From positions 1-45,892 of the forward strand of contig JAHFED010000051.1 of assembly GCA_023248635.1 (NCBI GenBank): 45,892 nt of DNA, read 5' to 3'. The notes beneath the pieces are model-generated. The model searched no databases. It saw only the letters and a program-made list of their open reading frames with translations, and was not told the DNA's origin. Made by a program: the position numbers and the translations under genes. This document shows positions 97-35,762 of this stretch, piece by piece. Source of the DNA: Myxococcales bacterium (GTDB taxonomy: Bacteria > Myxococcota > UBA727 > VGSZ01). Numbering within the stretch: position 1 is the first letter of the stretch; each line of letters starts with the position of its first letter.

Positions 97-423
97 TTCC
101 AAGCCGCTGAACGGTTACAGGAGCGTTTCAAGAATCGCGTCCGTGATCTCACGGGTCGCAACTGCGGGCGCTCCATCAAAGAGGTGATCTCGGTCCTGCG
201 TCGGTACCTGCTGGGCTGGCACGGGTACTTCCAGATCACGTCGACACCATCGGTGCTGCTGGACTTCGACAGGTGGATTCGACATCGGCTGCGGTGCCTC
301 ATGGTCAAGCAGCGTCAGCCTGGCGGTCACCAGAAGTGGTGGGCGTTGGCCCTGGCAGCAAACACCGAAATTCCCAACCGCTACTTCGACCACGCAGGGC
401 TTCCCCGATTGGTCGAAGCGTGA
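97..423 (+). pseudogene. Group II intron maturase, C-terminal remnant
   Basis: The reading frame ending at 423 encodes the C-terminal maturase (domain X) part of a group II intron-encoded protein. It contains ERFKNRVRDLTGRN, a YLLGWHGYF core and DRWIRHRLRC, the usual order for this family. Known members have a reverse transcriptase domain of about 300 residues before this point, but none of the three forward frames upstream of about base 97 looks like one, and the frame has a stop at bases 1-3. I read it as a 5'-damaged or truncated copy, although the window edge hides the rest. The ribozyme 3' domains follow directly, which supports the identification. It is unlikely to encode an active protein. 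Confidence 0.75.
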
Positions 424-743: not shown

Positions 744-1646
744 TCAGGGGGCGTCGGTGTAGGGCAGGGGCAGGGGTCGCACCCCGCCGCGGGCGCGGTC
801 GGCTTCTTCGTCGTCGGCGGCGGCGGCGCTCTTGGGGTCTTTGGCCCGCGCGGCCCAGCGCACCTGCGGATGAGCGTCCATATATCTTTCAGCCACCGCA
901 ATTCCCGTCGCTTCGCTGTAGAAATTTTCGGCACCGATGTGCATCCGATAGCGTCGGGCTTCGACGTAGCCGGCGACCTCGGCTGAGCCGGTGGGCCAGG
1001 CTTCGATGACGGTGGTTCCCCGCCGGGCCGGGAACTCGATGGGGATCTTGGTGGCGTATTCGACGGCGTCGGCATTGTTGCGCTCGACGTTGCGCAGCTC
1101 GAGCCGCTGCCCGTCGGGCAGGATGACCCGAACGTTGTAGGTGTTGGTCAGGGCGAAGGCCCGCCGCCGCACGTCGTCGGCGGCCTGCTTGCCCTCGTCG
1201 GTGGCCCCGAAGGCGCTGACCTCCGCAGCCGTCACCCTCAGCTCGCCGGCGTCGAGCTTCCATCTCAGGTCGCCCGGCCCTGCCTCTCGCGCGGCCTTCA
1301 GGACGTCGAGAGAGGCGCGCGCCACGCTGTGGCTCTCCATCTTCGCCAGCACCAGCGCCGCCAGCTGCTCGGCCCGGCCGCTGCCCGCGTGGCCCGAGAT
1401 GTTGATGGCAATATGACCCGTAATCGTCGCACCCCCATTCACTCCTAAGACGTTCATCTCCTTACACAATCCAGTATAATAGGAGAACGACCAGGCTTCA
1501 TATTGAATCCTCGGCGAAGGCAGGAACATCGCGGCCGAGGCGCCGCCGGCGAGGGCCGCCTGTTGCAGTTTTTCGAGCACGGCCTGTAGCCCAGCGTGCT
1601 CCTCGATGGGGCCACTGGGCCACAGGCTCGTCGTTGCAAGAGCCAA
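744..1646 (-). CDS. Unknown protein, third gene of the PK-like/HIT operon
   Basis: A 300-residue protein that I do not recognise. A TTG start at 1646 is chosen because GGGAGAG stands seven bases before it; no ATG occurs until residue 40. There is no signal peptide or clear membrane segment. Residues 55-90 hold a Gly/Ile-rich stretch (GGATITGHIAINISGHAG), the middle is mixed alpha/beta, and the C-terminus is charged and probably disordered. It lies 98 bases downstream of the HIT-family gene on the same strand and is probably co-transcribed with it. Codons around 1440-1510 are unusually AT-rich and include a chance promoter-like TATTATACT on the coding strand. Function unknown; the reading frame itself is fairly secure from codon bias. 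Confidence 0.65.
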   Translation of the reverse strand: MALATTSLWPSGPIEEHAGLQAVLEKLQQAALAGGASAAMFLPSPRIQYEAWSFSYYTGLCKEMNVLGVNGGATITGHIAINISGHAGSGRAEQLAALVLAKMESHSVARASLDVLKAAREAGPGDLRWKLDAGELRVTAAEVSAFGATDEGKQAADDVRRRAFALTNTYNVRVILPDGQRLELRNVERNNADAVEYATKIPIEFPARRGTTVIEAWPTGSAEVAGYVEARRYRMHIGAENFYSEATGIAVAERYMDAHPQVRWAARAKDPKSAAAADDEEADRARGGVRPLPLPYTDAP

Positions 1647-1744
1647 TCGATCTCTCCCGGTGGTCGAAGGTTCGCGCGGGACTGCGGCTGCCGGCTGTGC
1701 GCGTCAGCGCGGAGCCACCCAAAGAGCCAACGAAAGCAGGCCCC

Positions 1745-2749
1745 TCAGGTCGCGACTGCGGCGGGCGGAGCGGGCGGGGTCGTCGTCGATGGGCCGAGCT
1801 TGTGCTGCAGCTGGCTCTTGATCTGGTCGAACCAGGCCTCGAGTTGCGGCCGCATCTGGGCGTCCTCGATGAAGGCCTTCGCGGGCGCGCCATCTTGGGT
1901 GTAGTTGCCGACGTCGGGGAGCACGTGCACGTGCAGCTGGGCCACGGTGAGGTTCTGGGGGGCGTTGATCCAGATGCTGGAGGCGTTGCACCCCGTGGCC
2001 CGCATGAAGGCATCGGAGACGTGAGCAGCCACGAAGGCGGCTTCGTCGAGCAAACCGGCAGGAGCGTCGACGGGCAGGTTGACGGGCACCTTGGGCACCA
2101 CGAGCGCCTTGGGGGCATCGGCCCAGGTATCGACGACGACGACGAAGTTCTTGCTTTCCCACAGCACGATCTCGTTGTCGCGGGCGTTGGGCAGGTTGTG
2201 GATCACGGGCGTGAAGGGATCCTTGAGCTGGGCCACCCGAGGGCGCTCCGCCAAGACGACGTCGCGCTCGGTCTGCGCCTTCGTCGACGGCGACTTCGTC
2301 ACGTCGTGGTGGTGGGCTTTGAAGGCCGACTTGTATTGGGTCTCGAGGTTGGCGCGCACCGTTTCTTCGATGCCGTTTCTCTCTCTGCGGGTCAGCTTGT
2401 CACCCTTGGCCTGCGCGGCCTGGGCGAGGGCCGACGTAAGCATGGGATCGATGATCTCGGCATCGGCGCGCTGCTCCGCCGCAGCCTCGTGCACTGCGAC
2501 CTTCCAGTCGGCCAGCAGCTGGGGCACCGCCGTCGTCGTCGGGCCGCCGCTGATGGCGTTGACCCCCGCGCGGTAGCGCATGTCGTGGGCCGCGTTGTGC
2601 GCACCCTTGTCGACCTGATCCGCCAGCGTCGACGCTGGGGCCGGGCTGGCCGCCGCGCTTGCCTTGGTGTCGACAGTGGCGACTTTGCCGGCGTCGGCAG
2701 GCTGGGTGGTCGCAACGGGCGGACGATTTCCAATGCTGTTGTTTCTCAT
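1745..2749 (-). CDS. HIT-family protein with disordered N-terminal half
   Basis: A 334-residue protein. Residues 1-60 are rich in Ala, Thr and Pro and probably disordered; about 60-180 look helical. About 185-300 resemble the histidine-triad (HIT) fold: a VVDTWADAPKALVVPKVPV strand-turn-strand, then INAPQNLTVAQLHVHVLPD. In the family the triad is H-x-H-x-H; here the first His is Gln and the last two, including the nucleophile position, are kept. HIT proteins hydrolyse or transfer nucleoside phosphates, so a nucleotide-phosphate substrate is plausible but unproven. Its ATG shares one base with the stop of the pyruvate-kinase-like gene (TGATG), so the two are translationally coupled. It is much longer than the usual 110-150 residue HIT protein. 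Confidence 0.75.
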   Translation of the reverse strand: MRNNSIGNRPPVATTQPADAGKVATVDTKASAAASPAPASTLADQVDKGAHNAAHDMRYRAGVNAISGGPTTTAVPQLLADWKVAVHEAAAEQRADAEIIDPMLTSALAQAAQAKGDKLTRRERNGIEETVRANLETQYKSAFKAHHHDVTKSPSTKAQTERDVVLAERPRVAQLKDPFTPVIHNLPNARDNEIVLWESKNFVVVVDTWADAPKALVVPKVPVNLPVDAPAGLLDEAAFVAAHVSDAFMRATGCNASSIWINAPQNLTVAQLHVHVLPDVGNYTQDGAPAKAFIEDAQMRPQLEAWFDQIKSQLQHKLGPSTTTPPAPPAAVAT

Positions 2750-5436
2750 CAGCCATCCCCTTTGAGCGCGTGCAGGTGTGGTGGAACCAGCGGAACCGGA
2801 CCGGGGCCGCTGCGGCTGACAAAGAGGGCCGCCGCCGTCGTCTTGCCGAGCGCGGGGGTCTCTTTCTTCTTCACCGGCAACGCGCGTTCGGCCTCGTTGA
2901 AGACCAGGTAACCCGAAGCCTCGCGCACGACGTCGCCCGGGTTTTTGTGGGCCGAGGTCTCTTTGCCGAGCATGACCGCTTCGAATTGGCGGTCGACGAC
3001 GGCACCGAAGAGGGCGTCGACGTCGCCCCGGCTGGCGCGGGACTCTTGCAAAACGCTCATCATCACTTCGGTGGCGAGCATGACGGGACGGCCGGTCTTG
3101 TCGCCGACCTCTTTGATTAGGCGCTCGGCCACGGGCAGACGAGCCTCACCGATCTCCGCGCCGAGGTCACCGCGGGCCACCATCAAGGCCTCGCTGGCGA
3201 GCGCTATCTCCACGAGGGCTGCCTCGTCGAGAGCAATGTTGCCCCTCTCGATCTTGGCGATGATCGGCACCACCTTGCCGAGGTCGCTCATCCGGGCCCG
3301 CAAGAACCCGATGTCGGTGGCGGACTGCACGAAGGATTGGGCGACGACGTCGACGTGGGGCAGCAGCGCGGTCAGGTTTTGCAGATCCTCTTCGGTCACG
3401 GTCTGACTCGAGAGCTGCGACTGCGGGAAGGCGACGCCCTTGTTGTCCCAAACCTTGCCCCCCTTGAGCACTTCGCACTCAATCTGGCCGGTCTTGTCGT
3501 CGACGGACAGGATCTTGAGTTGCACCGTGCCGTCGTTCATCGAGACAGGATCACCGATCTTGGCATCCTTAGTCATCGTTGGATAATCCACCGGGAAAAG
3601 ACGCGGATTTCCAACCACACCCTTCGACGTCAATGTGACCTTCTCGCCCGCCTTCAAGAAGATGTCGTTGCTGGCCAATTTCTGCGGATTTTCAAACGTC
3701 CCAAGGCGGATCTTTGGACCTTCGAGATCTACCTGAATCGAGATGTCTTTACCCATTTGAGCAGCGAATTTTCGCAGCTTCTGCATCAAGCCGATCTTGT
3801 CGTTGATCGAGCCATGGGCCGTGTTGAAGCGAGCGACGTCCATGCCCGCGACGATCATGTCCTTGAGCTGCTCGTCGGTGGCTCTGGGGTTGATGGTGGC
3901 GACGATGCGCGTGCTGCGATCGGCGATGGGCCGGGAGGAGAAGACCTGGCCGAGATCGACGCCGGTGGTGCCGGCGACGCCGTGGTTCCAGCGGGCGCTC
4001 AGGGCTTCGATCTGCTTCTTGGCGACGTCGTCGACCTTGCCGGCGGGCAGGGCTCCCACATAGGCGCTCAACGCCGCCAGGGTGCCGATGAGCTGATGGC
4101 CCACCAGCTCGCCGGCGTTTGAGGCGTCGACGACGACGCGTTTCATCAGGTCGTCGACACGGCCCAGCAGCTCGAGCACGTTTTTCGGAGCGCCAGGCGG
4201 AGCCTTGTTGCTCGGGGTCTTGCCGGCGAGGAAGAGGCCGTCTTTGATGGCGCCGACGACGATGTCCTTGAGGGCGTGGGCTTCGGCACCCAGGCCCACC
4301 GGCTTTCCCGCCTGGTCGACCTCGAGCTGCAGCGGAGCCCAACGCATGGCTTCGGCTTTGAGCTCGGTCTCGAGTCGCTGGGCCTCAGCCCCATCGATGC
4401 CGATGCCACGGGCAATGACCTCGATGGTGCGGGGGTTGGTGGCTTGGCCTTCGCGGCGCACCACCATGCTCATGAGCTCGGCTTGGGATTTGGTCGGGTA
4501 CAGCTGCGAGAGGCCAGCAACGATGTGCCGCACGAGGTGCAGCTGGGCATCGAGCCCGGTGCGGTAGTGCCCAGAGAAGGTGCCAATCAAGACCTGGGTG
4601 ATGGCGCCCTTTTTGTCCTTTTGCACCTCGAAGGTGCCAGCCGTGAAGGCATCGTTGCCCTTGGAGAGCACGGTGTGACCCGGCGAGGGCTTGCCGGGCT
4701 CGACGACGGAGGCGCGGGCGACGTCGTAGGCGTCGACGACGTACTCGCAGAGCTGGCCGCTTCTGAGCTCGCTCAAAAAGGCAGGGTTGACGTCGCGGAT
4801 CTGGGCCTCTTGGCCGCCCTTCAAATAGAACTCGACGGTCTTTTGGGCGACGTAGGCGAGGTGGTCTTCGGGGGTCCACTTCTTGGCTTTTTTGTGGGTG
4901 TCCTTGGCCACGAGCCAGGCGCCGACCGGCATGGGGTCGGCCTTGTCCTGCAGCTCGACGGCGCGCCGAAAGATGGTGGTCGAGACTTCGGCGAGGTCTT
5001 TGGCCAGCAACAGGCCCTTGGTCTTGGCCGCCGGGTTGTCGACGAGGGAGAGCTTGTTGACCGTGGCCTTGATGCGCTCTTCGAAGACATAGACCTGCGA
5101 GCAGAGGCCGATGAGCGCGTTGCCGTCGACGCCCTTGAAGCCCTCGTTGCGCGCGGCCTTGGTCAGCGGGGCGATCTCGTCGGCAATGGCGTCGATGACC
5201 TTGGCAAAGTCGCCGCGGGCCCAGAGCTCGTCGAGGTGGGTCGTGAGGCGCGTTTTGCCGATGCCGCCGCTGCTGTCTTTGGCTTGGCCCGTAGCCACAG
5301 CCGTCGCCGCCGTCGTCTTGGTCGGGCTGATGGGGATCGTGGTCTCAGCCGCCTTGGGCGCGGCGAAACTGGCTGGACGCTGGGCCCGGATGAGCTGCCG
5401 GGTGTGGGGCTTCGGTGACGGTGTCGGAAGCTTCAT
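2749..5436 (-). CDS. Pyruvate-kinase-like fusion protein
   Basis: An 895-residue protein starting at ATG 5436. Residues 1-55 are Thr/Ala/Pro-rich and probably disordered. About 60-480 are mainly helical and of unknown role, with an internal SGHYRT motif (about residue 280) like the SGHYRP motif of some plant and bacterial proteins. About 500-860 match the pyruvate kinase barrel and B domain: VARFNTAHG, DLEGPKIRLG, AKIERG, MVARGDLGAE and ATEVMMSV keep the substrate, metal and catalytic Lys positions. The usual C-terminal allosteric domain is absent, and the region normally reading VMLSGETA is VMLGKETS. A typical enzyme is about 470 residues. It may be a real but divergent kinase or a PK-fold protein with another role. 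First gene of a three-gene operon behind a structured promoter region. Confidence 0.75.
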   Translation of the reverse strand: MKLPTPSPKPHTRQLIRAQRPASFAAPKAAETTIPISPTKTTAATAVATGQAKDSSGGIGKTRLTTHLDELWARGDFAKVIDAIADEIAPLTKAARNEGFKGVDGNALIGLCSQVYVFEERIKATVNKLSLVDNPAAKTKGLLLAKDLAEVSTTIFRRAVELQDKADPMPVGAWLVAKDTHKKAKKWTPEDHLAYVAQKTVEFYLKGGQEAQIRDVNPAFLSELRSGQLCEYVVDAYDVARASVVEPGKPSPGHTVLSKGNDAFTAGTFEVQKDKKGAITQVLIGTFSGHYRTGLDAQLHLVRHIVAGLSQLYPTKSQAELMSMVVRREGQATNPRTIEVIARGIGIDGAEAQRLETELKAEAMRWAPLQLEVDQAGKPVGLGAEAHALKDIVVGAIKDGLFLAGKTPSNKAPPGAPKNVLELLGRVDDLMKRVVVDASNAGELVGHQLIGTLAALSAYVGALPAGKVDDVAKKQIEALSARWNHGVAGTTGVDLGQVFSSRPIADRSTRIVATINPRATDEQLKDMIVAGMDVARFNTAHGSINDKIGLMQKLRKFAAQMGKDISIQVDLEGPKIRLGTFENPQKLASNDIFLKAGEKVTLTSKGVVGNPRLFPVDYPTMTKDAKIGDPVSMNDGTVQLKILSVDDKTGQIECEVLKGGKVWDNKGVAFPQSQLSSQTVTEEDLQNLTALLPHVDVVAQSFVQSATDIGFLRARMSDLGKVVPIIAKIERGNIALDEAALVEIALASEALMVARGDLGAEIGEARLPVAERLIKEVGDKTGRPVMLATEVMMSVLQESRASRGDVDALFGAVVDRQFEAVMLGKETSAHKNPGDVVREASGYLVFNEAERALPVKKKETPALGKTTAAALFVSRSGPGPVPLVPPHLHALKGDG

Positions 5437-5828: not shown

Positions 5829-7529
5829 TCAGCCCGCACTGAACCAGATGGTGTTGCGGGTGTCGTCGATGGTGAAGGCTTTGTGCTCGAGCAAAATCAG
5901 CCGCAGCTCGTTCTCGGGCTTTTGAAATTGGTGCATTGCGGCCTGCAGCAGATGCGACCACTGCACTTCGCGACGTCCCGACGGCCCGGTGTGGCCGTAC
6001 AACACAAGGTATTGAAGGATCCAGTTCGTCACCTTCAAGTTGCCGTTTTCGACGTCGGATTTTGTGAAGCGTTCATTCATGGTGAAGAAGCGGTCTGCGA
6101 GCGCCTTCACCAGTGATCCAATCCAAGTGTTCAGGCCCAGCTCATGCTCGAGCTGCTTGCGGGTCACGATGACGGCCGTGACATCGTCGACGGCGACGAC
6201 GCTGGCGGAGCGGGTCGAGGAGCGAAACACACTGGCCTCGCCGACGACGGCGCCGTGGCCCAGGGTTGCCAGACCACGTCGACGGCCGGTGGACTTGTCG
6301 GTCTGGTAGACCTGCACCGTGCCCTTCTGGGTGATGTACACCTCTTCGCCCAGCTCGCCCTCGACCATCAAATGCTCGCCGCTCTTGAAGAGCTTGGTCG
6401 GCAAGCCAGCGCCGCCTTTCAAGAAATTCTCGATGTCTTTCTTGAGCTCGAGCACCGTTTGATAACGATGTTCTTGGTTCTTCTGCAGACACTTCATGCA
6501 AATGTCGGCGAGGTTCTTGGGAATCTGGGAGTCGGGCGCGATGAGCTCGGGGCGGATCACCTGGCAGGCCTGGGCCTGGCGGACGACGTCGACGACGGTG
6601 GCGCCCATGTAGGGCGGCTGCTTGGTCAGGATCTCGTAGAGCACGCCGCCCAGCAGGAAGATGTCGGTGCGCTCGTCGATGAGCTCGAGCTGGGCCAGGG
6701 CCTGCTCTGGCGACATGTAAAAGAAGGTGCCGATGATCTGCCCGCTCTCGTCCTGGGGCGGCGCCTCCCGGCGCACCCGCACCGGCATCATGTCTTCGAT
6801 GGACTTGCCGATGGCCGACATCGCGATGGTCTTCGTCGGCCCCTGGCCCTGCGCCGGCATGCCGCCGGTACGGTGCAACAAGCGCGCGATGCCCCAATCC
6901 ATCAGATAGGCTTCGCCGAAGTTTCCCACCATGATATTGTCAGGTTTTAGATCGCGGTGAATGACGCCGCGGCTGTGCGCGAAGGCCACCGCATCGAGGA
7001 TGCGCAGGAAGATGCTCAGAAACCGGAAGTATTCTTCGCGGGTGTCGACGGCGTCGTTTTCAGTCAACAGATCTGTGAGGGTCTTGCCCCGCACATAAAG
7101 CATCGTGAAAAACTTGGTGCCTTCGTCTTCGCCGAAGTCGTGCACCGGGACGATGTTGGGGTGCTCGAGCTGGCCCATGATCTGGGCCTCCTCGGCGAAG
7201 CGCTGCATGACCTTGGGATCGGCGCGGTGCTCGGGGAAGGCGACCTTCATGGCCACGGTGCGCTGGAGGTTGTCGTCGAAGACCTTGCGGATCGAGCCCA
7301 TGCCGCCGCGAGCGATTTCGCCTTTGTCGTTGTAGCGAACGGTGACGTCGCTGGTGAGCTTCTTGGCGGCGGCGTCCGACGAAGGAGCGATGGGCATCGC
7401 CGTCGACATCTCGCCGTTGGGCGGAATCTTCGCCGAGGGTATGCGGCCCGTCTCCTCGGCGCGCTTGTCACCGCGCAGCCAGCCCAGCAGTCCTCCTCCT
7501 CCGGTCTTGCCCTTTTTGTCCTCGGCCAT
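5829..7529 (-). CDS. Serine/threonine protein kinase with cNMP-binding domain
   Basis: A 566-residue protein. The start at ATG 7529 is chosen for the GAAGGG ribosome-binding site just upstream; an upstream GTG would add 18 residues. Residues 1-65 are a basic, probably disordered leader. The kinase domain (about 66-370) has a Gly-rich loop ARGGMGS, the catalytic Lys in VAMKVAF (K95), HRDLKPDN (191-198), DWG in place of DFG (211-213) and MSPEQA. About 380-480 form a cyclic-nucleotide-binding-like domain (GEEVYITQKGTVQVY, VVGEASVFRSSTRSASVVA), followed by a helical tail. No membrane segment is seen, so it is probably cytosolic, with kinase activity that may respond to a nucleotide ligand. The DWG variant keeps the metal-binding Asp. 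Targets unknown. Confidence 0.88.
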   Translation of the reverse strand: MAEDKKGKTGGGGLLGWLRGDKRAEETGRIPSAKIPPNGEMSTAMPIAPSSDAAAKKLTSDVTVRYNDKGEIARGGMGSIRKVFDDNLQRTVAMKVAFPEHRADPKVMQRFAEEAQIMGQLEHPNIVPVHDFGEDEGTKFFTMLYVRGKTLTDLLTENDAVDTREEYFRFLSIFLRILDAVAFAHSRGVIHRDLKPDNIMVGNFGEAYLMDWGIARLLHRTGGMPAQGQGPTKTIAMSAIGKSIEDMMPVRVRREAPPQDESGQIIGTFFYMSPEQALAQLELIDERTDIFLLGGVLYEILTKQPPYMGATVVDVVRQAQACQVIRPELIAPDSQIPKNLADICMKCLQKNQEHRYQTVLELKKDIENFLKGGAGLPTKLFKSGEHLMVEGELGEEVYITQKGTVQVYQTDKSTGRRRGLATLGHGAVVGEASVFRSSTRSASVVAVDDVTAVIVTRKQLEHELGLNTWIGSLVKALADRFFTMNERFTKSDVENGNLKVTNWILQYLVLYGHTGPSGRREVQWSHLLQAAMHQFQKPENELRLILLEHKAFTIDDTRNTIWFSAG

Positions 7530-7604
7530 GGTCCCTTCGATTAACACGAAACCCCAAGGCGCCGCGCGAGAGCGGACAGCCACGCGAGACGAGAGGCGCT
7601 CTGC

Positions 7605-13636: not shown

Positions 13637-15085
13637 ATGAACACCCTTGTGCGCCCCACCAGCCTGTTGTCCCTCCTCTGCGCCGCGGTTTTGGTCAGCG
13701 CCTGTCCGGATGCCCCGGCCGAGGGCGAAGGTGAAGGCGAAGGCGAAGGCGACGTCGGCGAAGGCGAGGGTGAAGCCGGCGAAGGCGAGGGCGAAGGCGA
13801 AGACCTCACCGCGCCGCCCCGGGTGGCGAGCACCGACCCCGCCGACGACGCCGTCAACGTCGACGTCAACGTCAACCCCAGCGCCACCTTCAACAAGATC
13901 ATGGATGGCGGCAGCCTCGTCGCTGAGACCACCTTCACCCTCACCAAGGGCGGCGTGCTCGTGCCCGGACGCGTCACCACCTTTGGCCGCACGGCCACCT
14001 TCCGACCCGACGACCTGCTCACGGTGGGCACCATCTACACCGGCACCATCACCACCGGGGCCCGCGACGAAGACGGCCACCCCGTCGAGACCGAGGTGAC
14101 CTGGGACTTCACCACCGCCGGCGACGACGCGCCGCCGCAGGTGGTCTCGGTCAGTCCCATCAACAACGAGATCGGCGTCTCGATTCACCGCCTCCTCAAG
14201 GTGCGCTTCACCAAGGCCATGAGCGCTGCCTCCATCAACGACGGCACTTTCCTCGTATTGCAGGGCGCCACACCCATCGCCGGCGACGTGGGCTACGACG
14301 TCGACACGAACACCGGCACCTTCCGCGCCGACGTCGCCTTCGACCCCTCGCTGCCCTACAGCGCCACCATCACCACGGGGGTCACCGACGACGACGCCGC
14401 TCCCCATGCTTTGGAGAGCGCGTTCAGTTGGAACTTCACCACCGGGGCCTGCACCCAAGAGCCCATCACGCTGGGAGCCGCCGGCGCCTTCGCTGTGCTC
14501 GCCGGCACCGCAGTGACCAACAGCGGCGTCAGCAACGTCACCGGCGACGTCGGCACCAGCCCCGGCGTCGACATCACGGGCTTTCCTGCTGGCGAGCTCG
14601 TGGGCACCCAACACGCCGCCGACGCCACCGCCATCGCTGGAGCAGCAGCTTTGAGCAGCGCCTTCGACGACGCCGCCGGCCGCACCCTCTGCCCCATCGC
14701 TGTCACCGCGCTGGCAGGCACGCCCAACCTCGGCGGTCGCACCCTCTCGCCCGGCCTGTACAAGTCCGAGAGCGGCATCGACATCGCCGCCTTCGACCTC
14801 ACCCTCGACGCTGGCGGCGACGACGACGCCATCTTCATTTTTCAGGTGGCCTCAGAGCTGAGCACCACCGCCAACCGCACCGTGCAGCTGACCAACGGCG
14901 CCCAGGCCCAGAATGTCTTCTGGCAGGTCGGCACGTCGGCGACCCTGGGCGCGGGCACCACCTTTCAGGGCACGATCATGGCCGACGAGAGCATCACCCT
15001 TGGCGCCGGCACCACCCTGAGCGGCCGCACGTTGGCCCGCGACGCCGCTGTCACCCTCGACACCAGCACCATCACCACGCCCTGA
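13637..15085 (+). CDS. Lipoprotein with Ig-like and DUF3494 (ice-binding-like) domains
   Basis: A 482-residue predicted lipoprotein. A signal peptide ends in the lipobox LVSAC, followed by an acidic Glu/Gly repeat linker (about 30-58). Two Big_5 (SbsA-type) Ig-like domains follow (PPRVASTDPADDAVNVDVN and PPQVVSVSPINNEIGVS). The C-terminal about 210 residues are a DUF3494 domain (LGAAGAFAVLAGTAVTNSG, TGDVGTSPG, SPGLYKSES, FQGTIMADESITLGAGT). DUF3494 is the fold of ice-binding proteins but is also common in bacteria that do not face ice, where adhesion is a possible role. The ATG at 13637 has an AGGGTGAC site upstream. Confidence 0.88.
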   Translation: MNTLVRPTSLLSLLCAAVLVSACPDAPAEGEGEGEGEGDVGEGEGEAGEGEGEGEDLTAPPRVASTDPADDAVNVDVNVNPSATFNKIMDGGSLVAETTFTLTKGGVLVPGRVTTFGRTATFRPDDLLTVGTIYTGTITTGARDEDGHPVETEVTWDFTTAGDDAPPQVVSVSPINNEIGVSIHRLLKVRFTKAMSAASINDGTFLVLQGATPIAGDVGYDVDTNTGTFRADVAFDPSLPYSATITTGVTDDDAAPHALESAFSWNFTTGACTQEPITLGAAGAFAVLAGTAVTNSGVSNVTGDVGTSPGVDITGFPAGELVGTQHAADATAIAGAAALSSAFDDAAGRTLCPIAVTALAGTPNLGGRTLSPGLYKSESGIDIAAFDLTLDAGGDDDAIFIFQVASELSTTANRTVQLTNGAQAQNVFWQVGTSATLGAGTTFQGTIMADESITLGAGTTLSGRTLARDAAVTLDTSTITTP

Positions 15086-15122
15086 GCGACGTCGGCGACT
15101 CGGCTGGGGCCCGGCGGTCGAT

Positions 15123-16763
15123 TCAACGATCCAAGCGGATGTCGCCGACCTTGCTCAGGAACTCGTCGTAGGGCGCCTGGAAGTCATCGATGCCGTGCTT
15201 CGACATGGCGAGAATGCGGGTGGCGGCGTCGGCGACGAGATCGCGATCGTGAGTCACGAAGATGACCGTGCCCTCGTACTTGCGCACGGCATCGCGCAGG
15301 GCCGAGATCGATTCCAGGTCGAGGTGGTTGGTCGGCTCGTCGAAGACCAAGACGTTGTGCTTGAGCAGCATGAGCTTCGCGAAGAGCATGCGCGCGGTCT
15401 CACCGCCGGAGAGCACGTGGGTGAGCTTTTCGCCTTCTTCACCAGAGAAGAGCATGCGGCCGAGCAAGCTGCGGATGCTCTCCTTGGTGGCGCGGTCCGC
15501 TGGCGTGGCGGGTTCGTCGAGCGAATAGAGCCACTGCCACAGCGGAATGTTCGGCGGGATGCCGTGGCTGTGGTCTTGGGCGAAGTAGCCCGTACGCACC
15601 TCGTGGCCCCAAACGACCTCGCCAGCGTCTTGGGCCAGCTCGCCCATGATCAGCCGCAGCAAGGTCGTCTTGCCGATGCCGGAGGGCCCGATGACGGCCA
15701 TCTTGTCGCCGCGCATCAGATTGAGGTCGAGACCCTTGACGATCTCGATGTCGGGCTTGCCCGCCTCTTTGAAGGTCTTCGAGAGTTTCTCCAGACGCAA
15801 GATGTGCTTGCCCGACGGACGTCCACCGATCTCGAACTTGATGAAAGGCCTGGCGATGTTGGATTTCTTCAGCTCGTTGCCCTGCAGCTTTTCGATCTCC
15901 TTCTTGCGTCCCTGCACCTGAGAAGCGCGGGTGCCGGCGCCGAAGCGGGCGATGAAGTCCTTGAGTTGGGCCACCTTCTTGGCCTTGTCGGAGTTGCTGC
16001 TTTCGATGCGCGAGCGCACTTCGGACTTCTGCAGCACCATGTCGTCGTAGTTGCCGGTGTAGACGATGATGGTCTCGTAGTCGATGTCGGCCACGTGGGT
16101 GGCCACCGAGTTCAAGAAGTGACGATCGTGGCTGATGACGACGAGGGTGCCCTCGTACTTCAGCAAGAACTGCTCGAGCCAATGGATGCTGTCGAGATCG
16201 AGATGGTTCGTCGGTTCGTCGAGCAGCAAGCAATCGGGACGACCAAAGAGGGCCTGGGCCAAGAGCACGCGCAGCTTCAAGCCACCGCTCATCTCCCGCA
16301 TCGAGCCCGTGTGCAGCTCCTGCGGGATGCCCAGACCATCGAGCAATTTTGAGGCTTCGCCGTCGGCGACGTAGCCGTCTTCTTCGCCGACAACGGTTTC
16401 CAGATCGCCCAAGCGCATGCCCATTTCGTCGCTGAGCTCGAGGCCTTCTTCGAGCTTCTGCAAGATGGTGTTTTTTTCGTGAATGGCCGCCCAGAGGCGC
16501 GCGTTGCCCATCATGACGACGTCGATGACGCGTTGGTCGTCGTAGGCGTGCTGGTCTTGGCGCAAGATCGACGTCTTGCGCGGACGCGACACGCTCCCTT
16601 TGGCGGGGTCGGCGTCGCCGGCGAGAAACTTCATGAAGGTCGACTTGCCGGCGCCGTTGGGTCCGGTGAGCGCAAAGCGACGCCCCGGTGGAAAGGTGAC
16701 CGAGACGTTTTCGAAGAGGGACTTTCCCCCAAAGGACTGGCTGACTTCGATGACGGACAACAT
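15123..16763 (-). CDS. ABC-F family ATPase (YbiT-like)
   Basis: A 546-residue protein with two ABC ATPase cassettes and no membrane segments, as in translation-associated ABC-F proteins. Walker A motifs are GPNGAGKST and GPSGIGKTT, signature motifs MSGGLKLR and LSGGETARM, and Walker B sequences LLLDEPTNHLDL and LVFDEPTNHLDL. A basic linker (DKAKKVAQLKDFIARF to GRKKEIEKLQ) sits between them. Family members act at the ribosomal E site. ATG 16763 is preferred over a GTG two codons upstream. It is divergent from the sigma factor across about 150 bases. Confidence 0.93.
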   Translation of the reverse strand: MLSVIEVSQSFGGKSLFENVSVTFPPGRRFALTGPNGAGKSTFMKFLAGDADPAKGSVSRPRKTSILRQDQHAYDDQRVIDVVMMGNARLWAAIHEKNTILQKLEEGLELSDEMGMRLGDLETVVGEEDGYVADGEASKLLDGLGIPQELHTGSMREMSGGLKLRVLLAQALFGRPDCLLLDEPTNHLDLDSIHWLEQFLLKYEGTLVVISHDRHFLNSVATHVADIDYETIIVYTGNYDDMVLQKSEVRSRIESSNSDKAKKVAQLKDFIARFGAGTRASQVQGRKKEIEKLQGNELKKSNIARPFIKFEIGGRPSGKHILRLEKLSKTFKEAGKPDIEIVKGLDLNLMRGDKMAVIGPSGIGKTTLLRLIMGELAQDAGEVVWGHEVRTGYFAQDHSHGIPPNIPLWQWLYSLDEPATPADRATKESIRSLLGRMLFSGEEGEKLTHVLSGGETARMLFAKLMLLKHNVLVFDEPTNHLDLESISALRDAVRKYEGTVIFVTHDRDLVADAATRILAMSKHGIDDFQAPYDEFLSKVGDIRLDR

Positions 16764-29775: not shown

Positions 29776-30225
29776 TTGACGCAGCTCCTTCTCGTGGAAG
29801 ATGACGAAGACATCCGCGAGACCTTCGCGGACGTGCTGCGCGACAACGCCTACGACGTCGTCGAAGCTCCCAATGGTCGGGTCGCTCTCAACCTTTTGCA
29901 GGCCGGCCTGCGTCCCCGCTTGATCCTCCTCGACTACGCGATGCCGGTGATGGACGGCGCCGAATTCCGCGCGCGCCAGCTCGCCGACCCCGCGCTCACC
30001 GAGGTCCCCGTCGTGCTGATGACGGCCGCCACCGGGGTGCAGGCCATCGCCGACGCCCTCCGTCCGGATTTCTTGCTGCGCAAGCCCTTCAGCCTGAAGG
30101 AGCTGTTTTCGACCCTGGCGGTGGCTCTCGCCAACAGCGCCGCAAATCGACGACCAGCCACCGTTGCTGCGCCACCCGGCTTCGTCGACGTCGTCGTCTC
30201 CGCCAAGAAGGGAATGCTAGAATGA
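29776..30225 (+). CDS. CheY-like response regulator receiver protein
   Basis: A 149-residue single receiver domain with acidic pocket LVEDDED, phospho-acceptor Asp in LILLDYAMPVMDG (about residue 55), a Thr in LMTAATG and Lys in LRKPF. A tail of about 30 residues has no known output domain. The start is TTG 29776, since no ATG fits. Its stop overlaps the ATG of the large kinase gene (ATGA), so the receiver is a likely partner of that kinase. Confidence 0.9.
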   Translation: MTQLLLVEDDEDIRETFADVLRDNAYDVVEAPNGRVALNLLQAGLRPRLILLDYAMPVMDGAEFRARQLADPALTEVPVVLMTAATGVQAIADALRPDFLLRKPFSLKELFSTLAVALANSAANRRPATVAAPPGFVDVVVSAKKGMLE

Positions 30226-33200
30226 CCATTGCCTCGTCTCGCTCGAGCTCGCGCAGCGACCTCTCCGCGCCGGTCCGCCCGACGCCGAAGGGCAAGAGTG
30301 AGAGCAGGGGCAAGGGCAAGAAAGGCAGCGCTCTCGCCAAGGCCAAGCGCCTGCCGAGAGGCGACGACGATCGCACCGCCAACCCCCAAGCCTCCAACGC
30401 CGCCCCCGACGACGGAGAATGGAGCAATCTGTCGAAGGCCGCGCAGATGGAGATCGAGGCGCTGGTCGAGGTGCTGAAGGCGGTCAAGGCCGGGGACTTC
30501 GAGGCGCGCCTCCCCTACAACCGCAATGGCATCTTGAGCCGCGCCGGCGAGCTTGTGAACGACATCGTCGGGCTCAACGAGCACCTCGCTGGCGAGCTGA
30601 CGCGCGTCGGCAGGATCGTCGGGCGGGAAGGTCGCATGGCCGAACGCGCCTCCATGGGGCCAGCCAAGGGCGCGTGGGCCAGCAGCGCAAACGCTGTCAA
30701 CCAACTCATAGGCGACCTCGTCGCGCCCACCAACGAAGTCGCCCGCGTCATCACAGCTGTCGCCAAGGGGGACCTGTCCGAAAAGATGGTGCTGGAGATC
30801 GATGGCCGACCGGTGCGAGGCGAGTTTCTGCGCATCGGCACCACCGTGAACAGCATGGTCGACCAACTGAATTCCTTCGCCGCCGAAGTCACGCGCGTCG
30901 CCAAAGAAGTCGGCAACGAAGGCAAGCTGGGCGGTCAAGCAGACGTCAAAGGCGTGTCGGGCACCTGGAAAGACCTCACGGAAAACGTCAACGGCCTGGC
31001 TGCCAATCTCACCGCCCAGGTGCGCAACATCGCCAAGGTCACCACCGCCGTCGCCAAAGGCGACCTCTCTCAATCCATCACCGTCGACGCACGGGGCGAA
31101 ATCCTCGAGCTCAAAAACACCATCAACGTGATGGTCGACCAGCTCTCGTCCTTCGCTGCCGAGGTCACCCGTGTGGCCAAGGAGGTTGGCACCGAGGGGA
31201 AGCTCGGCGGTCAGGCCGAGGTCAAGGGCGTCTCGGGCACCTGGAAAGATCTGACCGACAACGTCAACGGCCTGGCTGCCAACCTCACCGCCCAGGTGCG
31301 CAACATCGCCAAGGTCACCACTGCTGTGGCCAACGGCGACCTCTCGCAGAAGATCACGGTCGATGCCCGCGGCGAGGTCTATGAGCTCAAGAACACCATC
31401 AACACGATGGTCGACACGCTGCGTTGGTTCTCGCTCGAGGTCACGCGCGTTGCCAAGGAGGTGGGCTCCGAAGGCAAGCTTGGTGGACAAGCCGACGTCA
31501 GAGGCGTCGCCGGCACCTGGCGCGACCTCACCGACAACGTCAACGGGCTCGCGGGCAACCTCACCGCGCAGGTGCGCAACATCGCCAAGGTCACCACCGC
31601 CGTCGCCAACGGCGACCTCTCGCAAAAGATCACCGTCGACGCCAAGGGCGAGATCGACGAGTTGAAGAGCACCATCAACACCATGGTGGACACGCTGCGG
31701 TCCTTCGCCGCCGAGATCACGCGCGTCGCCAAAGAGGTCGGCTCCGAGGGCAGATTGGGGGGTCAGGCCAACGTCAAAGGCGTCGCCGGCAGCTGGAAGG
31801 ACCTCACCGACAACGTCAACTCCATGTCGAGCAACCTGAGCGTGCAGCTGCGGGATGTGTCCAAGGTCGCCGTCGCCGTGGCCAATGGCGATCTCTCCCA
31901 GAAGATCACCGTCGACGTCAGAGGCGAGGTCCTCGAGATCAAGAACGTCATGAACAAGATGGTGGAGCAGCTGAGCTCCCTCGCCGCCGAAGTCACCCGG
32001 GTGGCGCGCGAGGTCGGCTCCGAGGGCAAGCTCGGCGGGCAGGCCGACACCAAGGGCATGGCCGGCACCTGGAAAGATCTGACGAGCTCGGTGAACGGGC
32101 TCGCAGCCAACCTCACCCTGCAGCTGCGCGACGTCTCCAAGGTCGCCACGGCCCTGGCCAATGGCGATCTGACCCAAAAGGTCACCGTCAGCGTCAACGG
32201 CGAGCTGCTGCAGATCAAAGACGTCTTCAACGCCCTCGTCGACACGCTGCGCTCCTTCTCCGTTGAGGTCACGCGGGTGACCAAAGAGATTGGCACCGAG
32301 GGAAAGCTCGGCGGACACGCCGACGTCAAAGGCGCCGCCGGCACTTGGAGAGACCTCACCGACAACATCAACGGCCTGGCCACCACGCTCACGGTCCAGG
32401 TGCGCAACATCGCCCTGGTGACGACGGCTGTGGCCAACGGCGACCTGTCGCAAAAAACCACCGTCGACGCGCGCGGTGAAATATTTGAGCTGAAGAACAC
32501 CATCAACATCATGGTGGATCAGCTCCGGTCATTCGCCGCCGAGATGACCCGCGTGGCCAAGGAGGTCGGCACCGAGGGCAAGCTCGGCGGCCAGGCCGAC
32601 GTCAAAGGCGTTTCCGGCACCTGGCGAGATCTCACCGACAACGTCAACGTACTCGCGGCCAACGTGACGACCCAGGTGCGCAACATCGCCAAGGTCACCA
32701 CTGCCATCGCGCGTGGGGATCTCTCCCAGAAGATCACCGTCGAGGCGAGGGGCGAAATTTCGGAGCTGAAGCACACGATCAACTCGATGGTTGATCAGCT
32801 CAATTCGTTTACAGCCGAAGTGAGCCGCGTCGCCAAAGAGGTCGGCACCGAGGGCAAGCTCGGCGGGCAGGCCGACGTCAAAGGCGTCTCCGGCAGCTGG
32901 AAGGACCTGACCGACAACGTCAACACCATGGCGTCCAACCTCACCGTGCAGCTGCGCGACGTGTCGAGAGTCTCCACCGCCATCGCCAACGGCGACCTGG
33001 GACAGAAGGTCACCGTCGACGTCAAAGGCGAGATCCTTCAGATCAAAGACGTCATCAACAAGATGGTGGACCAGCTTTCGTCGTTCGCCTCGGAGGTCAC
33101 GCGCGTGGCCAAAGAGGTCGGCACCGAGGGCAAGCTCGGGGGCCAAGCCGACGTCAAAGGCGTCTCGGGTACTTGGAAGGATCTCACCGACAACGTGAAC

Positions 33201-35762
33201 GTCATGGCCACCAACCTGACCAAGCAAGTGCGCGGCATCGTCAAGGTCGTCACCGCCGTCGCCACCGGCGATCTCTCGCAGAAGTTCGTGCTCGAAGCCA
33301 AGGGCGAGGTCGCCGCCCTCGCCGAGACGATCAACAACATGACCGACACCCTGCGCATCCTGGCCGAGCAGGTGACGGGCGTGGCCCGCGAGGTGGGCAT
33401 CGAAGGCAAGCTCGGTGGCCAGGCCCATGTGCCGGGAGCGGCCGGCACATGGCGCGACCTCACCGACAACGTGAACTTCATGGCCAACAGCCTCACCGGC
33501 ATCGTGAAGGTCGTTACCGCCGTCGCCAACGGTGACCTGTCGCAGAAGTTCGCTCTCGAAGCCAAGGGCGAGGTGGCTGCTCTGGCGGTAACGATCAACA
33601 ACATGACCGACACGCTGCGCACCTTCGCCGATCAGGTGACGACGGTGGCCCGCGAAGTCGGCATCGAGGGCAAGCTCGGCGGGCAAGCCAAAGTCCCGGG
33701 CGCCGCCGGCACCTGGCGCGACCTCACCGACAACGTCAACCAGCTGGCCGGCAACTTGACCTCCCAGGTGCGCGCCATCGCCGAGGTGTCGACGGCGGTG
33801 ACCAAGGGCGACCTCACGCGATCGATCACCGTGCAGGCCCAGGGCGAGGTCGCGGCTCTCAAAGACAACGTCAACCAGATGATCTTGAACCTGCGTGGCA
33901 CCACCGAGAAAAACACCGGCCAAGACTGGCTGAAGACCAACCTCGCCAAGTTCTCGGTGATGATGCAGGGACAGCGCAACATCGTATCCGTGGCCCAGCT
34001 GATCATGTCGGAGCTGACGCCCGTCGTCGACGCCCAGCATGGCGGCTTCTACATGATGGAGACGAACGACAAGCTCGAGGCCGTGCTGAACCTCGTCGCC
34101 TCTTATGGTTTTACCGCGCGCAAGAGCTTGGCCCACACCTACAAGCTGAAGGAGAGCTTGGTCGGTCAATGCGCCTACGAGAAAAAACGCATCCTGCTCA
34201 GCGACGTCCCCGACGGCTTCATGGTCATCGCCACCGGTCTGGGGGAGGCCCCGCCCCGCAGCTGCGTCGTCTTGCCCGTGCTCTTTGAGGGCGAGGTGAA
34301 AGCCGTGATCGAGCTGGCCTCTTTCACCACCTTCTCGGTCAACCACCTGAGCTTCCTCGACCAGCTCATGGACAGCGTCGGCGTCATGCTGAACATGATT
34401 TCGTCGTCGATGCGAACCGAAGAGCTGCTGGCCGAGCTCAAGCGTTCAAATGGTGAGCTCGAGGCCCAAGCCAGCGAGCTGAACGAAAAGGCCCAGCTGC
34501 TCGAGGTGAAGAACAACGAAGTCGAGCTCGCGTCGCGCAGCCTCGAGGAAAAGGCGGAACAGCTCCAGCTCATCTCCAAATACAAGTCGGAGTTCCTGGC
34601 CAACATGTCGCACGAGCTTCGCACGCCGCTCAACAGCCTGCTCATCCTCTCTAGGATGTTGGCCGATAACAAAGACGGCAACCTGACGGCCGAACAAGTG
34701 AAATTCGCCAGCACCGTCTACAGCTCAGGCAACGATCTGCTCGGCCTGATCAATGAGATCCTCGATCTGTCGAAGGTCGAGGCCGGCAAGATGCCTATCT
34801 ACCCCCAAGAGACGCGCATAGAAGAGGTGAAGGATTATATCGAGTCCGCTTTCCGTCACGTTGCCGAGCAAAAAGGACTGTTGTTTGAGAGCACGCTCGA
34901 TCCCAATCTCCCTGTGCTGATTCATACCGACGCAAACCGCCTGCATCAAGTGCTCAAGAACCTGCTTTCTAATGCGTTCAAATTTACATCGGCAGGCAGC
35001 GTACGACTGCGCGTCGGCGCGGCCGTCGACGGCCTCGGCCAGGTCGTCGACGACATGGTCGCTTTCTCGGTGACAGACACCGGCATCGGCATTCCACCAG
35101 AAAAACAGAAGCTCATCTTCGAGGCGTTCCAGCAGGCCGACGGCACCACGAGCCGCAAATACGGCGGCACCGGGCTCGGGCTCACCATCAGCCGCGAGAT
35201 CGCGCGCTTGCTCGGCGGCTCGATCCAGGTTCGCAGTGAGCTCGGCATCGGCAGCACGTTCACCTTGCTGCTTCCGCGCAGTTACTCCGGTGAAGAGCCG
35301 CTGCTCGACGTCGACGAAAAACCCGTGCGCAGCGAAGGCGCGCCCTCTTTGCCCCTGCCGGCCGACGCGAGCTTCGCTGGGGTCAAGGTGCTGCTCATCG
35401 ACGACGATATCCGCAACATCTTTGCGCTGCACAGCTTGTTGAGCTCGCGCGGGGCCGTCGTGTTGCACGCCGAGAATGGGCGCCTGGGCATCGAGAAGCT
35501 GCGGCAGAACCCCGACATCGACGTCGTCTTGATGGACACCATGATGCCGGAGATGGATGGGCTGGCAGCGATTCAGAGCATTCGCCAAGAGCCCCGCTTC
35601 TGCGATCTCGTCATCATCTCCTTGACGGCGCAAGCGATGAAGGGCGACCGGGAGAAGGCGTTGGGTTCAGGAGCCAACGACTACGTGACCAAGCCCGTCG
35701 AAGGCGAGAGCCTGCTCAGCGTGCTGCACAGCTGGATCACCAAAGCGCGCAAGCTGTCCTGA
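30222..35762 (+). CDS. Poly-HAMP hybrid histidine kinase (about 25 HAMP units)
   Basis: An 1846-residue soluble hybrid kinase without membrane segments. Residues 1-75 are basic and disordered. About 80-1235 hold about 25 HAMP-type units, mostly alternating pairs ([10 protein letters not shown] type and [12 protein letters not shown] type) in 92-residue blocks. A GAF domain (about 1250-1395), a coiled coil, and HisKA with [12 protein letters not shown] (His1464) follow. The ATPase domain has [21 protein letters not shown] and GGTGLGL, and a C-terminal receiver has its Asp in [13 protein letters not shown] (Asp1772). Poly-HAMP kinases are known from bacteria and from fungal group III osmosensors; 25 units is at the long end. 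It is coupled to the receiver gene upstream. Confidence 0.95.
30636..33890 (+). repeat. Tandem 276-base repeats encoding paired HAMP units
   Basis: The GGCACCGAGGGCAAGCTCGG-like core recurs near 30911, 31187, 31463, 31739, 32015, 32291, 32567, 32843, 33119 and 33395, exactly 276 bases (92 codons) apart. It recurs again about 264 bases later, where four residues are missing. Copies differ by synonymous and conservative changes, so they are old duplications, but they are similar enough for recombination to change copy number in frame. Confidence 0.9.

What the first reader, a model, noticed from the sequence alone, without database searches (positions are those of the whole stretch)
744..5436. 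Operon of a pyruvate-kinase-fold fusion, an atypical HIT protein and an unknown protein
A truncated pyruvate kinase barrel fused to about 480 N-terminal residues is coupled to a HIT protein whose triad reads Q-H-H, followed by an unrecognised third protein. The first two start with disordered Thr/Ala/Pro leaders. Nothing here is a usual glycolytic arrangement. The set may be a nucleotide- or phosphate-handling system, or enzyme-like effectors with shared leader types.
Basis: partly seen in the sequence, partly recalled or inferred. Interest (0 to 1): 0.75.

Follow-up and report, generated by a model that had tools for sequence, protein, structure and literature searches.

The report
Leader-tagged pyruvate-kinase/HIT operon in myxobacteria
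A freshwater-type myxobacterium carries, besides two ordinary pyruvate kinases, a conserved operon of a cut-down pyruvate kinase fused to new domains, a HIT-type nucleotide hydrolase and a protein of unknown fold; these belong to a wider set of phosphate-handling proteins whose unrelated domains share the same kind of disordered front end, as if all were addressed to the same place.

Summary
Three minus-strand genes sit in order: 2749-5436 (895 aa), 1745-2749 (334 aa) and 744-1646 (300 aa). The first is a pyruvate kinase (PK) with complete A and B domains and the main catalytic residues, but no C domain. It follows a ~60-residue disordered leader and ~440 residues without a Pfam match. The second is a HIT protein whose Q-x-H-x-H motif is conserved in nearly all of its family. 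The third is a confidently modelled beta-sandwich with no relative in Pfam, NCBIfam or PDB. The genome also has two canonical PKs, so this is not the glycolytic enzyme.

The order is fully conserved in one relative and partly in three others. Across 195 genomes of the phylum all 8 with the PK fusion also have the third family, and 8 of 9 with the HIT family do. Neighbours are phosphate enzymes too: CYTH, Ppx/GppA, a P-loop kinase, a HIT-CYTH fusion and 1,140-aa CYTH-like proteins. Many carry the same Thr/Pro/Ala leader with an I/V/L near residue 3-5.

Best reading: a co-inherited set of phosphoryl-transfer enzymes carrying a common targeting leader, most likely for export. A type III route is possible but unproven. 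Contractile injection is unlikely.

The parts
2749..5436 (-). PK fusion gene, 895 aa: disordered leader (1-61), helical domain (63-166), alpha/beta domain (189-365), helical domain (382-484), pyruvate kinase A+B domains (507-852), disordered tail (855-895)
   Evidence: PF00224 E=8e-64; AlphaFold2 model pLDDT 71; Foldseek to M. tuberculosis PK E=5e-29; 7 relatives aligned
2932..3918 (-). pyruvate kinase A/B domain inside the fusion; main catalytic residues R536, N538, D570, K728, E730, R755, D757, T789 present; no C domain
   Evidence: own-genome profile hit C87:2932-3918, 219.6 bits; alignment with both canonical PKs of the same genome
1745..2749 (-). HIT-like gene, 334 aa: disordered leader, helical stretch, HIT domain (about 190-285) with Q271-x-H273-x-H275
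   Evidence: PF01230 in 11 of 11 family members at E<=0.5; profile v PDB 2eo4 E=9e-6; alignment
744..1646 (-). third gene, 300 aa, TTG start: beta-sandwich protein of a new family, with a helical insertion
   Evidence: AlphaFold2 pLDDT 90.5; no PDB or BFVD match at E<1e-3; 12 homologs aligned
2747..2751 (-). TGATG stop-start overlap joining PK fusion and HIT gene (translational coupling), kept in two relatives

Best explanation
The operon encodes members of a lineage-restricted set of phosphoryl-transfer enzymes that carry a common, disordered Thr/Pro/Ala-rich N-terminal leader acting as a targeting signal. Member 1 is a pyruvate kinase catalytic module (A and B domains) without the C domain that carries allosteric control in ordinary PKs. 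It could interconvert PEP + NDP and pyruvate + NTP, with the ~440-residue region after its leader acting as a second or docking domain. Member 2 is a HIT hydrolase/transferase that would cleave a nucleoside phosphate bond through H273. Member 3 is a beta-sandwich that most likely binds or docks. Elsewhere the same leader type is on CYTH, Ppx/GppA and P-loop kinase proteins, so the set as a whole would reshape nucleotide, polyphosphate and PEP pools somewhere other than the general cytosol. The most likely destination is outside the cell or in a prey or partner cell; the dispersed type III apparatus of these genomes is the best candidate route. Shown: genes, domains, retained PK residues, conserved order, co-distribution, shared leaders. 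Inferred: activity, the targeting role of the leader, export, the route.
For: Two canonical PKs elsewhere in the genome make this copy non-housekeeping. PK residues that bind substrate, metal and phosphate are kept in 7 of 8 members, yet every member lacks the C domain. Gene order PK-HIT-third is kept in L059/L005, PK-HIT in L004, PK-third in L054 and L056. All 8 PK-fusion genomes also have the third family (hypergeometric p 1e-11 by genome, 7e-4 by family); 8 of 9 HIT genomes do (1e-10; 1e-4). Phosphate neighbours: CYTH and leader-Ppx/GppA after PK-third in L054; CYTH and leader-P-loop kinase after PK in L055; HIT-CYTH fusion beside the third family in L072; in G184 and G013 the only Pfam CYTH gene, apart from a 1,140-aa CYTH-like protein in G184, lies right behind the PK fusion and, in G184, the third gene; leader-Ppx/GppA again in G186 and leader-CYTH in G018. 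Shared leaders: start motif M-x(1-3)-[IVL]-[NKRQSTDGP] in 26/31 family proteins v 98/378 other proteins (p 2e-10), richer in T/S/P/A, poorer in hydrophobics; five leader proteins found later all match (p 0.001). SctV and/or SctU type III export genes occur in every genome with the third family. In G013 the PK fusion and a third-family protein lie near large leader proteins with a needle-like C-terminus, and at the PK locus near TPR chaperone-like genes.
Against: No direct evidence of secretion or activity. The start motif was chosen after seeing the first 31 leaders, and some start codons are uncertain. Type III genes are common in the whole phylum (SctV over cut-off in 113 of 195), so their presence hardly discriminates (10/12 v 103/183, p 0.08). 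G184 has no SctJ match, and the only one in G013 lies in a 527-aa frame that looks flagellar. In G018 two third-family proteins and one CYTH-like protein have a hydrophobic, Sec-like segment after the leader, which does not fit a type III substrate. The TPR genes match LcrH/SycD only below cut-off or not at all. The G193 PK copy has lost the B domain and D757.
Confidence: 0.45

Rival explanations
1. An intracellular accessory phosphate/nucleotide pathway. The leaders are assembly or condensate tags that gather PK, HIT, CYTH and Ppx/GppA activities on a cytosolic body such as a polyphosphate granule, where PEP, NTP and polyphosphate are exchanged.
For: No Sec-type signal in the window's proteins and most relatives. 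CYTH and Ppx/GppA are families that act on triphosphate and polyphosphate (established family knowledge); HIT-CYTH fusion. Disordered tags also suit condensates.
Against: No granule-associated partner such as PPK or a CHAD domain was recognised in the neighbourhoods read (only selected neighbours were scanned with Pfam). Sec-like segments in G018 point outward. The leader sits at the extreme N-terminus and its start is constrained, which is more typical of an export signal.
Confidence: 0.3
2. Ordinary divergent metabolic paralogs. High-GC genomes generate Thr/Ala/Pro-rich disordered N-termini, and the leaders have no function; the operon is a lineage-specific accessory to glycolysis.
For: PK catalytic residues intact. 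Thr/Ser/Pro/Ala codons are GC-rich, and 26% of other proteins also fit the start motif.
Against: Leader composition and start motif differ from 378 other proteins encoded in the same loci. No glycolytic neighbours. Low-GC relatives also keep a leader (L057 MPKIQGPRNPKSSGEIAAPK; L073 MTIRSMRASRPESRRR). Unrelated phosphate enzymes carry it in the same places.
Confidence: 0.17
3. Cargo of an extracellular contractile injection system, whose effectors also have disordered N-terminal leaders.
For: Leader resemblance, from general knowledge only.
Against: The sheath family PF04984 is absent from 11 of the 12 genomes with the third family, including this one, although 78 of 195 genomes in the phylum have it (p 0.03 for depletion).
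Confidence: 0.03
4. Inactive, kinase-like and HIT-like scaffolds (pseudoenzymes) used for binding only.
For: G193 copy lacks the B domain and has D757 changed to E; Ser36 equivalent (E. coli PykF numbering) is Ala in the window; the first His of the HIT triad is Gln.
Against: K728, E730, D757, R536 and T789 are kept in seven members. H273 and H275 are invariant across 11 HIT members.
Confidence: 0.05

Closest known systems
Pyruvate kinase (PF00224; M. tuberculosis PYK 5ws9, E. coli PykF)
   Same: A barrel and B domain, main catalytic residues, Lys in the GPK motif as in M. tuberculosis PYK
   Different: No C domain in any member; fused behind ~500 extra residues; below the NCBIfam pyruvate kinase cut-offs (255 v 306 bits for TIGR01064); Ser36 equivalent (E. 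coli PykF numbering) is Ala in the window
HIT superfamily (PF01230; PDB 2eo4; weaker DcpS_C PF11969)
   Same: Fold-level profile match, nucleophile H273 and H275, upstream Asn (N262)
   Different: Gln in place of the first His in nearly all members; ~180 extra N-terminal residues with leader; fused to CYTH in one genome. From memory, CDP-diacylglycerol pyrophosphatase has a similar Q-x-H-x-H; not tested
CYTH triphosphate tunnel enzymes and Ppx/GppA phosphatases
   Same: Neighbours of this operon in relatives match these Pfam families
   Different: Several carry the shared leader; no report of a PK-HIT-CYTH-Ppx set was found in the paper library
Myxobacterial needleless T3SS* with Kil (Tad-like) apparatus, effectors unknown (PMC10433427, PMC12075869)
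   Same: SctV, SctU and SctJ type genes in this genome, dispersed over several contigs
   Different: No physical linkage to this operon in the window genome; most genomes with T3SS genes lack these proteins

Membership tests
Pyruvate kinase | PK barrel (A) and B domains | tested here: met
   PF00224 2-326/328, E=8e-64; Foldseek E=5e-29
Pyruvate kinase | Catalytic residues (R, N, D, K, E, R, D, T) | tested here: met
   Aligned to two canonical PKs of the same genome; degenerate only in G193
Pyruvate kinase | C-terminal domain (PF02887) for tetramer and allostery | tested here: not met
   No match in any of the 7 members scanned; sequences end about 40-60 residues after the barrel
Pyruvate kinase | Phosphoryl transfer from PEP to ADP | not testable with these tools
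   needs enzyme assay
HIT superfamily | HIT domain profile | tested here: met
   11/11 members match; PDB profile E=9e-6; the window sequence alone is below the Pfam cut-off
HIT superfamily | H-x-H-x-H triad | tested here: not met
   Q-x-H-x-H, Gln kept in 10 of 11 members; the catalytic second His is kept
Type III secreted effector | Unstructured N-terminal signal without Sec signal | tested here: inconclusive
   Disordered leader, no Sec-like segment in the window's proteins but present in G018
Type III secreted effector | Type III machinery in the genome | tested here: met
   SctV C49, SctU C122, SctJ-like C9 in G000; SctJ match is below the curated cut-off
Type III secreted effector | Machinery-dependent export | not testable with these tools
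   needs experiment
Extracellular contractile injection cargo | Contractile sheath in the genome | tested here: not met
   PF04984 absent from G000 and all but one of the 12 genomes

The most novel reading that the evidence does not exclude
The leader-tagged proteins (PK module, HIT, beta-sandwich, CYTH, Ppx/GppA, P-loop kinase) are substrates of the dispersed type III apparatus of Myxococcota, that is, an unrecognised set of exported phosphoryl-transfer enzymes that attack or feed on the PEP, nucleotide and polyphosphate pools of prey or partner cells.
Probability: 0.22. Interest if true: 0.85.

Novelty: new variant of a known kind. Interest (0 to 1): 0.58.

Why it matters
The substrates of the myxobacterial predation T3SS* are described as unknown (PMC10433427). 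This set gives concrete candidates with a testable N-terminal tag. Independently, a PK catalytic module stripped of its regulatory C domain and paired with nucleotide and polyphosphate enzymes would be a new use of a textbook glycolytic enzyme, and the third protein defines a new beta-sandwich family.

Tried and rejected
Contractile injection: rejected on sheath absence. Canonical glycolysis: rejected because two full PKs exist. Loss of PK active site: rejected for 7 of 8 members. T3SS linkage: SctV, SctJ and SctU loci of G000, G184, G013 and G183 were read; no leader proteins of these families lie beside them, so the link stays weak. A resemblance of the alpha/beta domain (HTxLxxG...AGT...SGHY) to plant IQM proteins is a memory lead only; Pfam gave nothing and the paper search did not help. 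Profile search of the third family against PDB sequences gave only chance-level hits. A phylum-wide search for the 1,140-aa CYTH-like family failed three times with a tool error, so its full distribution is unknown. No RNA family in the window; promoter and terminator scans uninformative. Relatives outside Myxococcota could hardly be tested: the one genome-contig scan finds close relatives only (2 loci).

Full report
The window is the whole of contig C87 of the genome held as G000 (6.5 Mb, 97% complete). The finding describes three minus-strand genes, and all three are there. The stop of the first and the start of the second overlap as TGATG, and the same junction occurs in two relatives. Codon comparison with relatives shows fewer changes at second than at third positions in all three genes, as expected for genes under selection.

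Gene 1 (2749-5436, 895 aa). Pfam finds only the pyruvate kinase barrel, residues 507-835, E = 8e-64. The AlphaFold2 model (pLDDT 71, seven sequences) gives a disordered leader (1-61), a helical domain (63-166), an alpha/beta domain (189-365), a helical domain (382-484), the kinase (507-852) and a disordered tail; the middle part is modelled with moderate confidence only. Foldseek matches the kinase part to M. tuberculosis PYK (E = 5e-29). Aligned to the two canonical pyruvate kinases of the same genome (C24 and C96), the fusion keeps R536, N538, D570, K728, E730, R755, D757 and T789, has Lys in the GPK motif, and lacks the C domain, as do all eight members. One relative (G193) has lost the B domain and changed D757, so it is probably inactive.

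Gene 2 (1745-2749, 334 aa). The HIT score of this sequence alone is under the Pfam cut-off, but all 11 members match HIT, and the family profile finds solved HIT proteins (2eo4, E = 9e-6). Q271-x-H273-x-H275 is a family feature, not a local mutation: both His are invariant and the Gln is kept in 10 of 11.

Gene 3 (744-1646, 300 aa). No family in Pfam or NCBIfam. The model is confident (pLDDT 90.5), a beta-sandwich with a helical insertion, and nothing in PDB or BFVD matches at E < 1e-3. The family alignment of 13 sequences has invariant H86, N168, Y170, P177, G179, T199, G210, G226, Y227, E229 and R231.

Conservation. PK-HIT-third is in the same order in L005/L059; PK-HIT in L004; PK-third in L054 and L056. 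Over 195 genomes of the phylum the PK fusion is in 8, the HIT family in 9 and the third family in 12. All 8 PK genomes and 8 of the 9 HIT genomes have the third family (p 1e-11 and 1e-10 by genome; 7e-4 and 1e-4 when counted by taxonomic family). PK and HIT co-occur less tightly at family level (p 0.24). The set is therefore sporadic but co-inherited, often at separate loci.

The wider set. Neighbours in relatives are again phosphate enzymes: L054 has CYTH and Ppx/GppA after PK-third; L055 has CYTH and a P-loop kinase after PK; L072 has the third family, a HIT-CYTH fusion and three ~1,140-aa CYTH-like proteins. In G184 and G013 the only Pfam CYTH gene, apart from a 1,140-aa CYTH-like protein in G184, is the one behind the PK fusion. 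Leader-Ppx/GppA recurs in G186 and leader-CYTH in G018. These unrelated domains share a disordered leader rich in T/S/P/A and a start of the form M-x(1-3)-[IVL]-polar: 26 of 31 family proteins against 98 of 378 others from the same loci (p 2e-10). The motif was drawn up after seeing those 31, but five leader proteins found later all match (p 0.001).

Where does the leader send them? The contractile injection route is unlikely: the sheath gene is missing in 11 of 12 genomes. Type III export genes (SctV and/or SctU) are present in all 12, but dispersed and common in the phylum; SctJ is missing or only flagellar-like in two genomes. In G013 the PK fusion and a third-family gene lie near large leader proteins with a needle-like C-terminus, and at the PK locus near TPR chaperone-like genes, which is suggestive only. 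In G018 three members have a Sec-like hydrophobic segment after the leader, which points outward but not to type III. I therefore rate targeting as likely, export as the leading option, and type III as a minority reading. An intracellular phosphate body remains a serious rival.

Shown: genes, domains, kept residues, conserved order, co-distribution, shared leaders, presence of other PKs. Inferred: catalytic activity, the targeting role of the leader, destination, substrates.

Noticed in passing
window 184-423: Remnant of a group II intron maturase (GIIM, E=4e-9) at the contig's left end, about 320 bp from the third gene; the contig probably breaks in this repeat.
   Followed up: partly
L072:10447-11640 (minus): HIT domain fused to a CYTH domain in one protein, beside a third-family gene and an array of 1,140-aa CYTH-like leader proteins.
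   Followed up: partly
L101:13136-16417, L055:1-2031, L063:11459-13999 and 14086-16509: Large leader proteins with a conserved needle-like C-terminal motif (LQMYxD...TLSNxxKKxSxTxxxIxxNxK); in G013 C44 (L101, L055) TPR chaperone-like genes lie beside them. Possible type III structural substrates of an undescribed kind.
   Followed up: partly
L056:4551-8141 (minus), L056:11713-12783, L064:9843-10901 (minus): In genome G018 the leader is followed by a hydrophobic, Sec-like or lipobox-like segment.
   Followed up: partly
G000:C120:41569-42278 (L092:9568-10278 minus): A second, divergent third-family protein in the same genome, with relatives in G186 and probably G185.
   Followed up: partly
window 30222-35762: 1,846-aa hybrid histidine kinase with about 12 tandem HAMP domains, GAF and receiver domains.
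   Followed up: no
window 13637-15085: Ice-binding-like domain with bacterial Ig-like domains behind a lipoprotein-like start.
   Followed up: no
window 5829-7583: Ser/Thr kinase fused to a cyclic-nucleotide-binding domain, on the same strand directly upstream of the operon.
   Followed up: no
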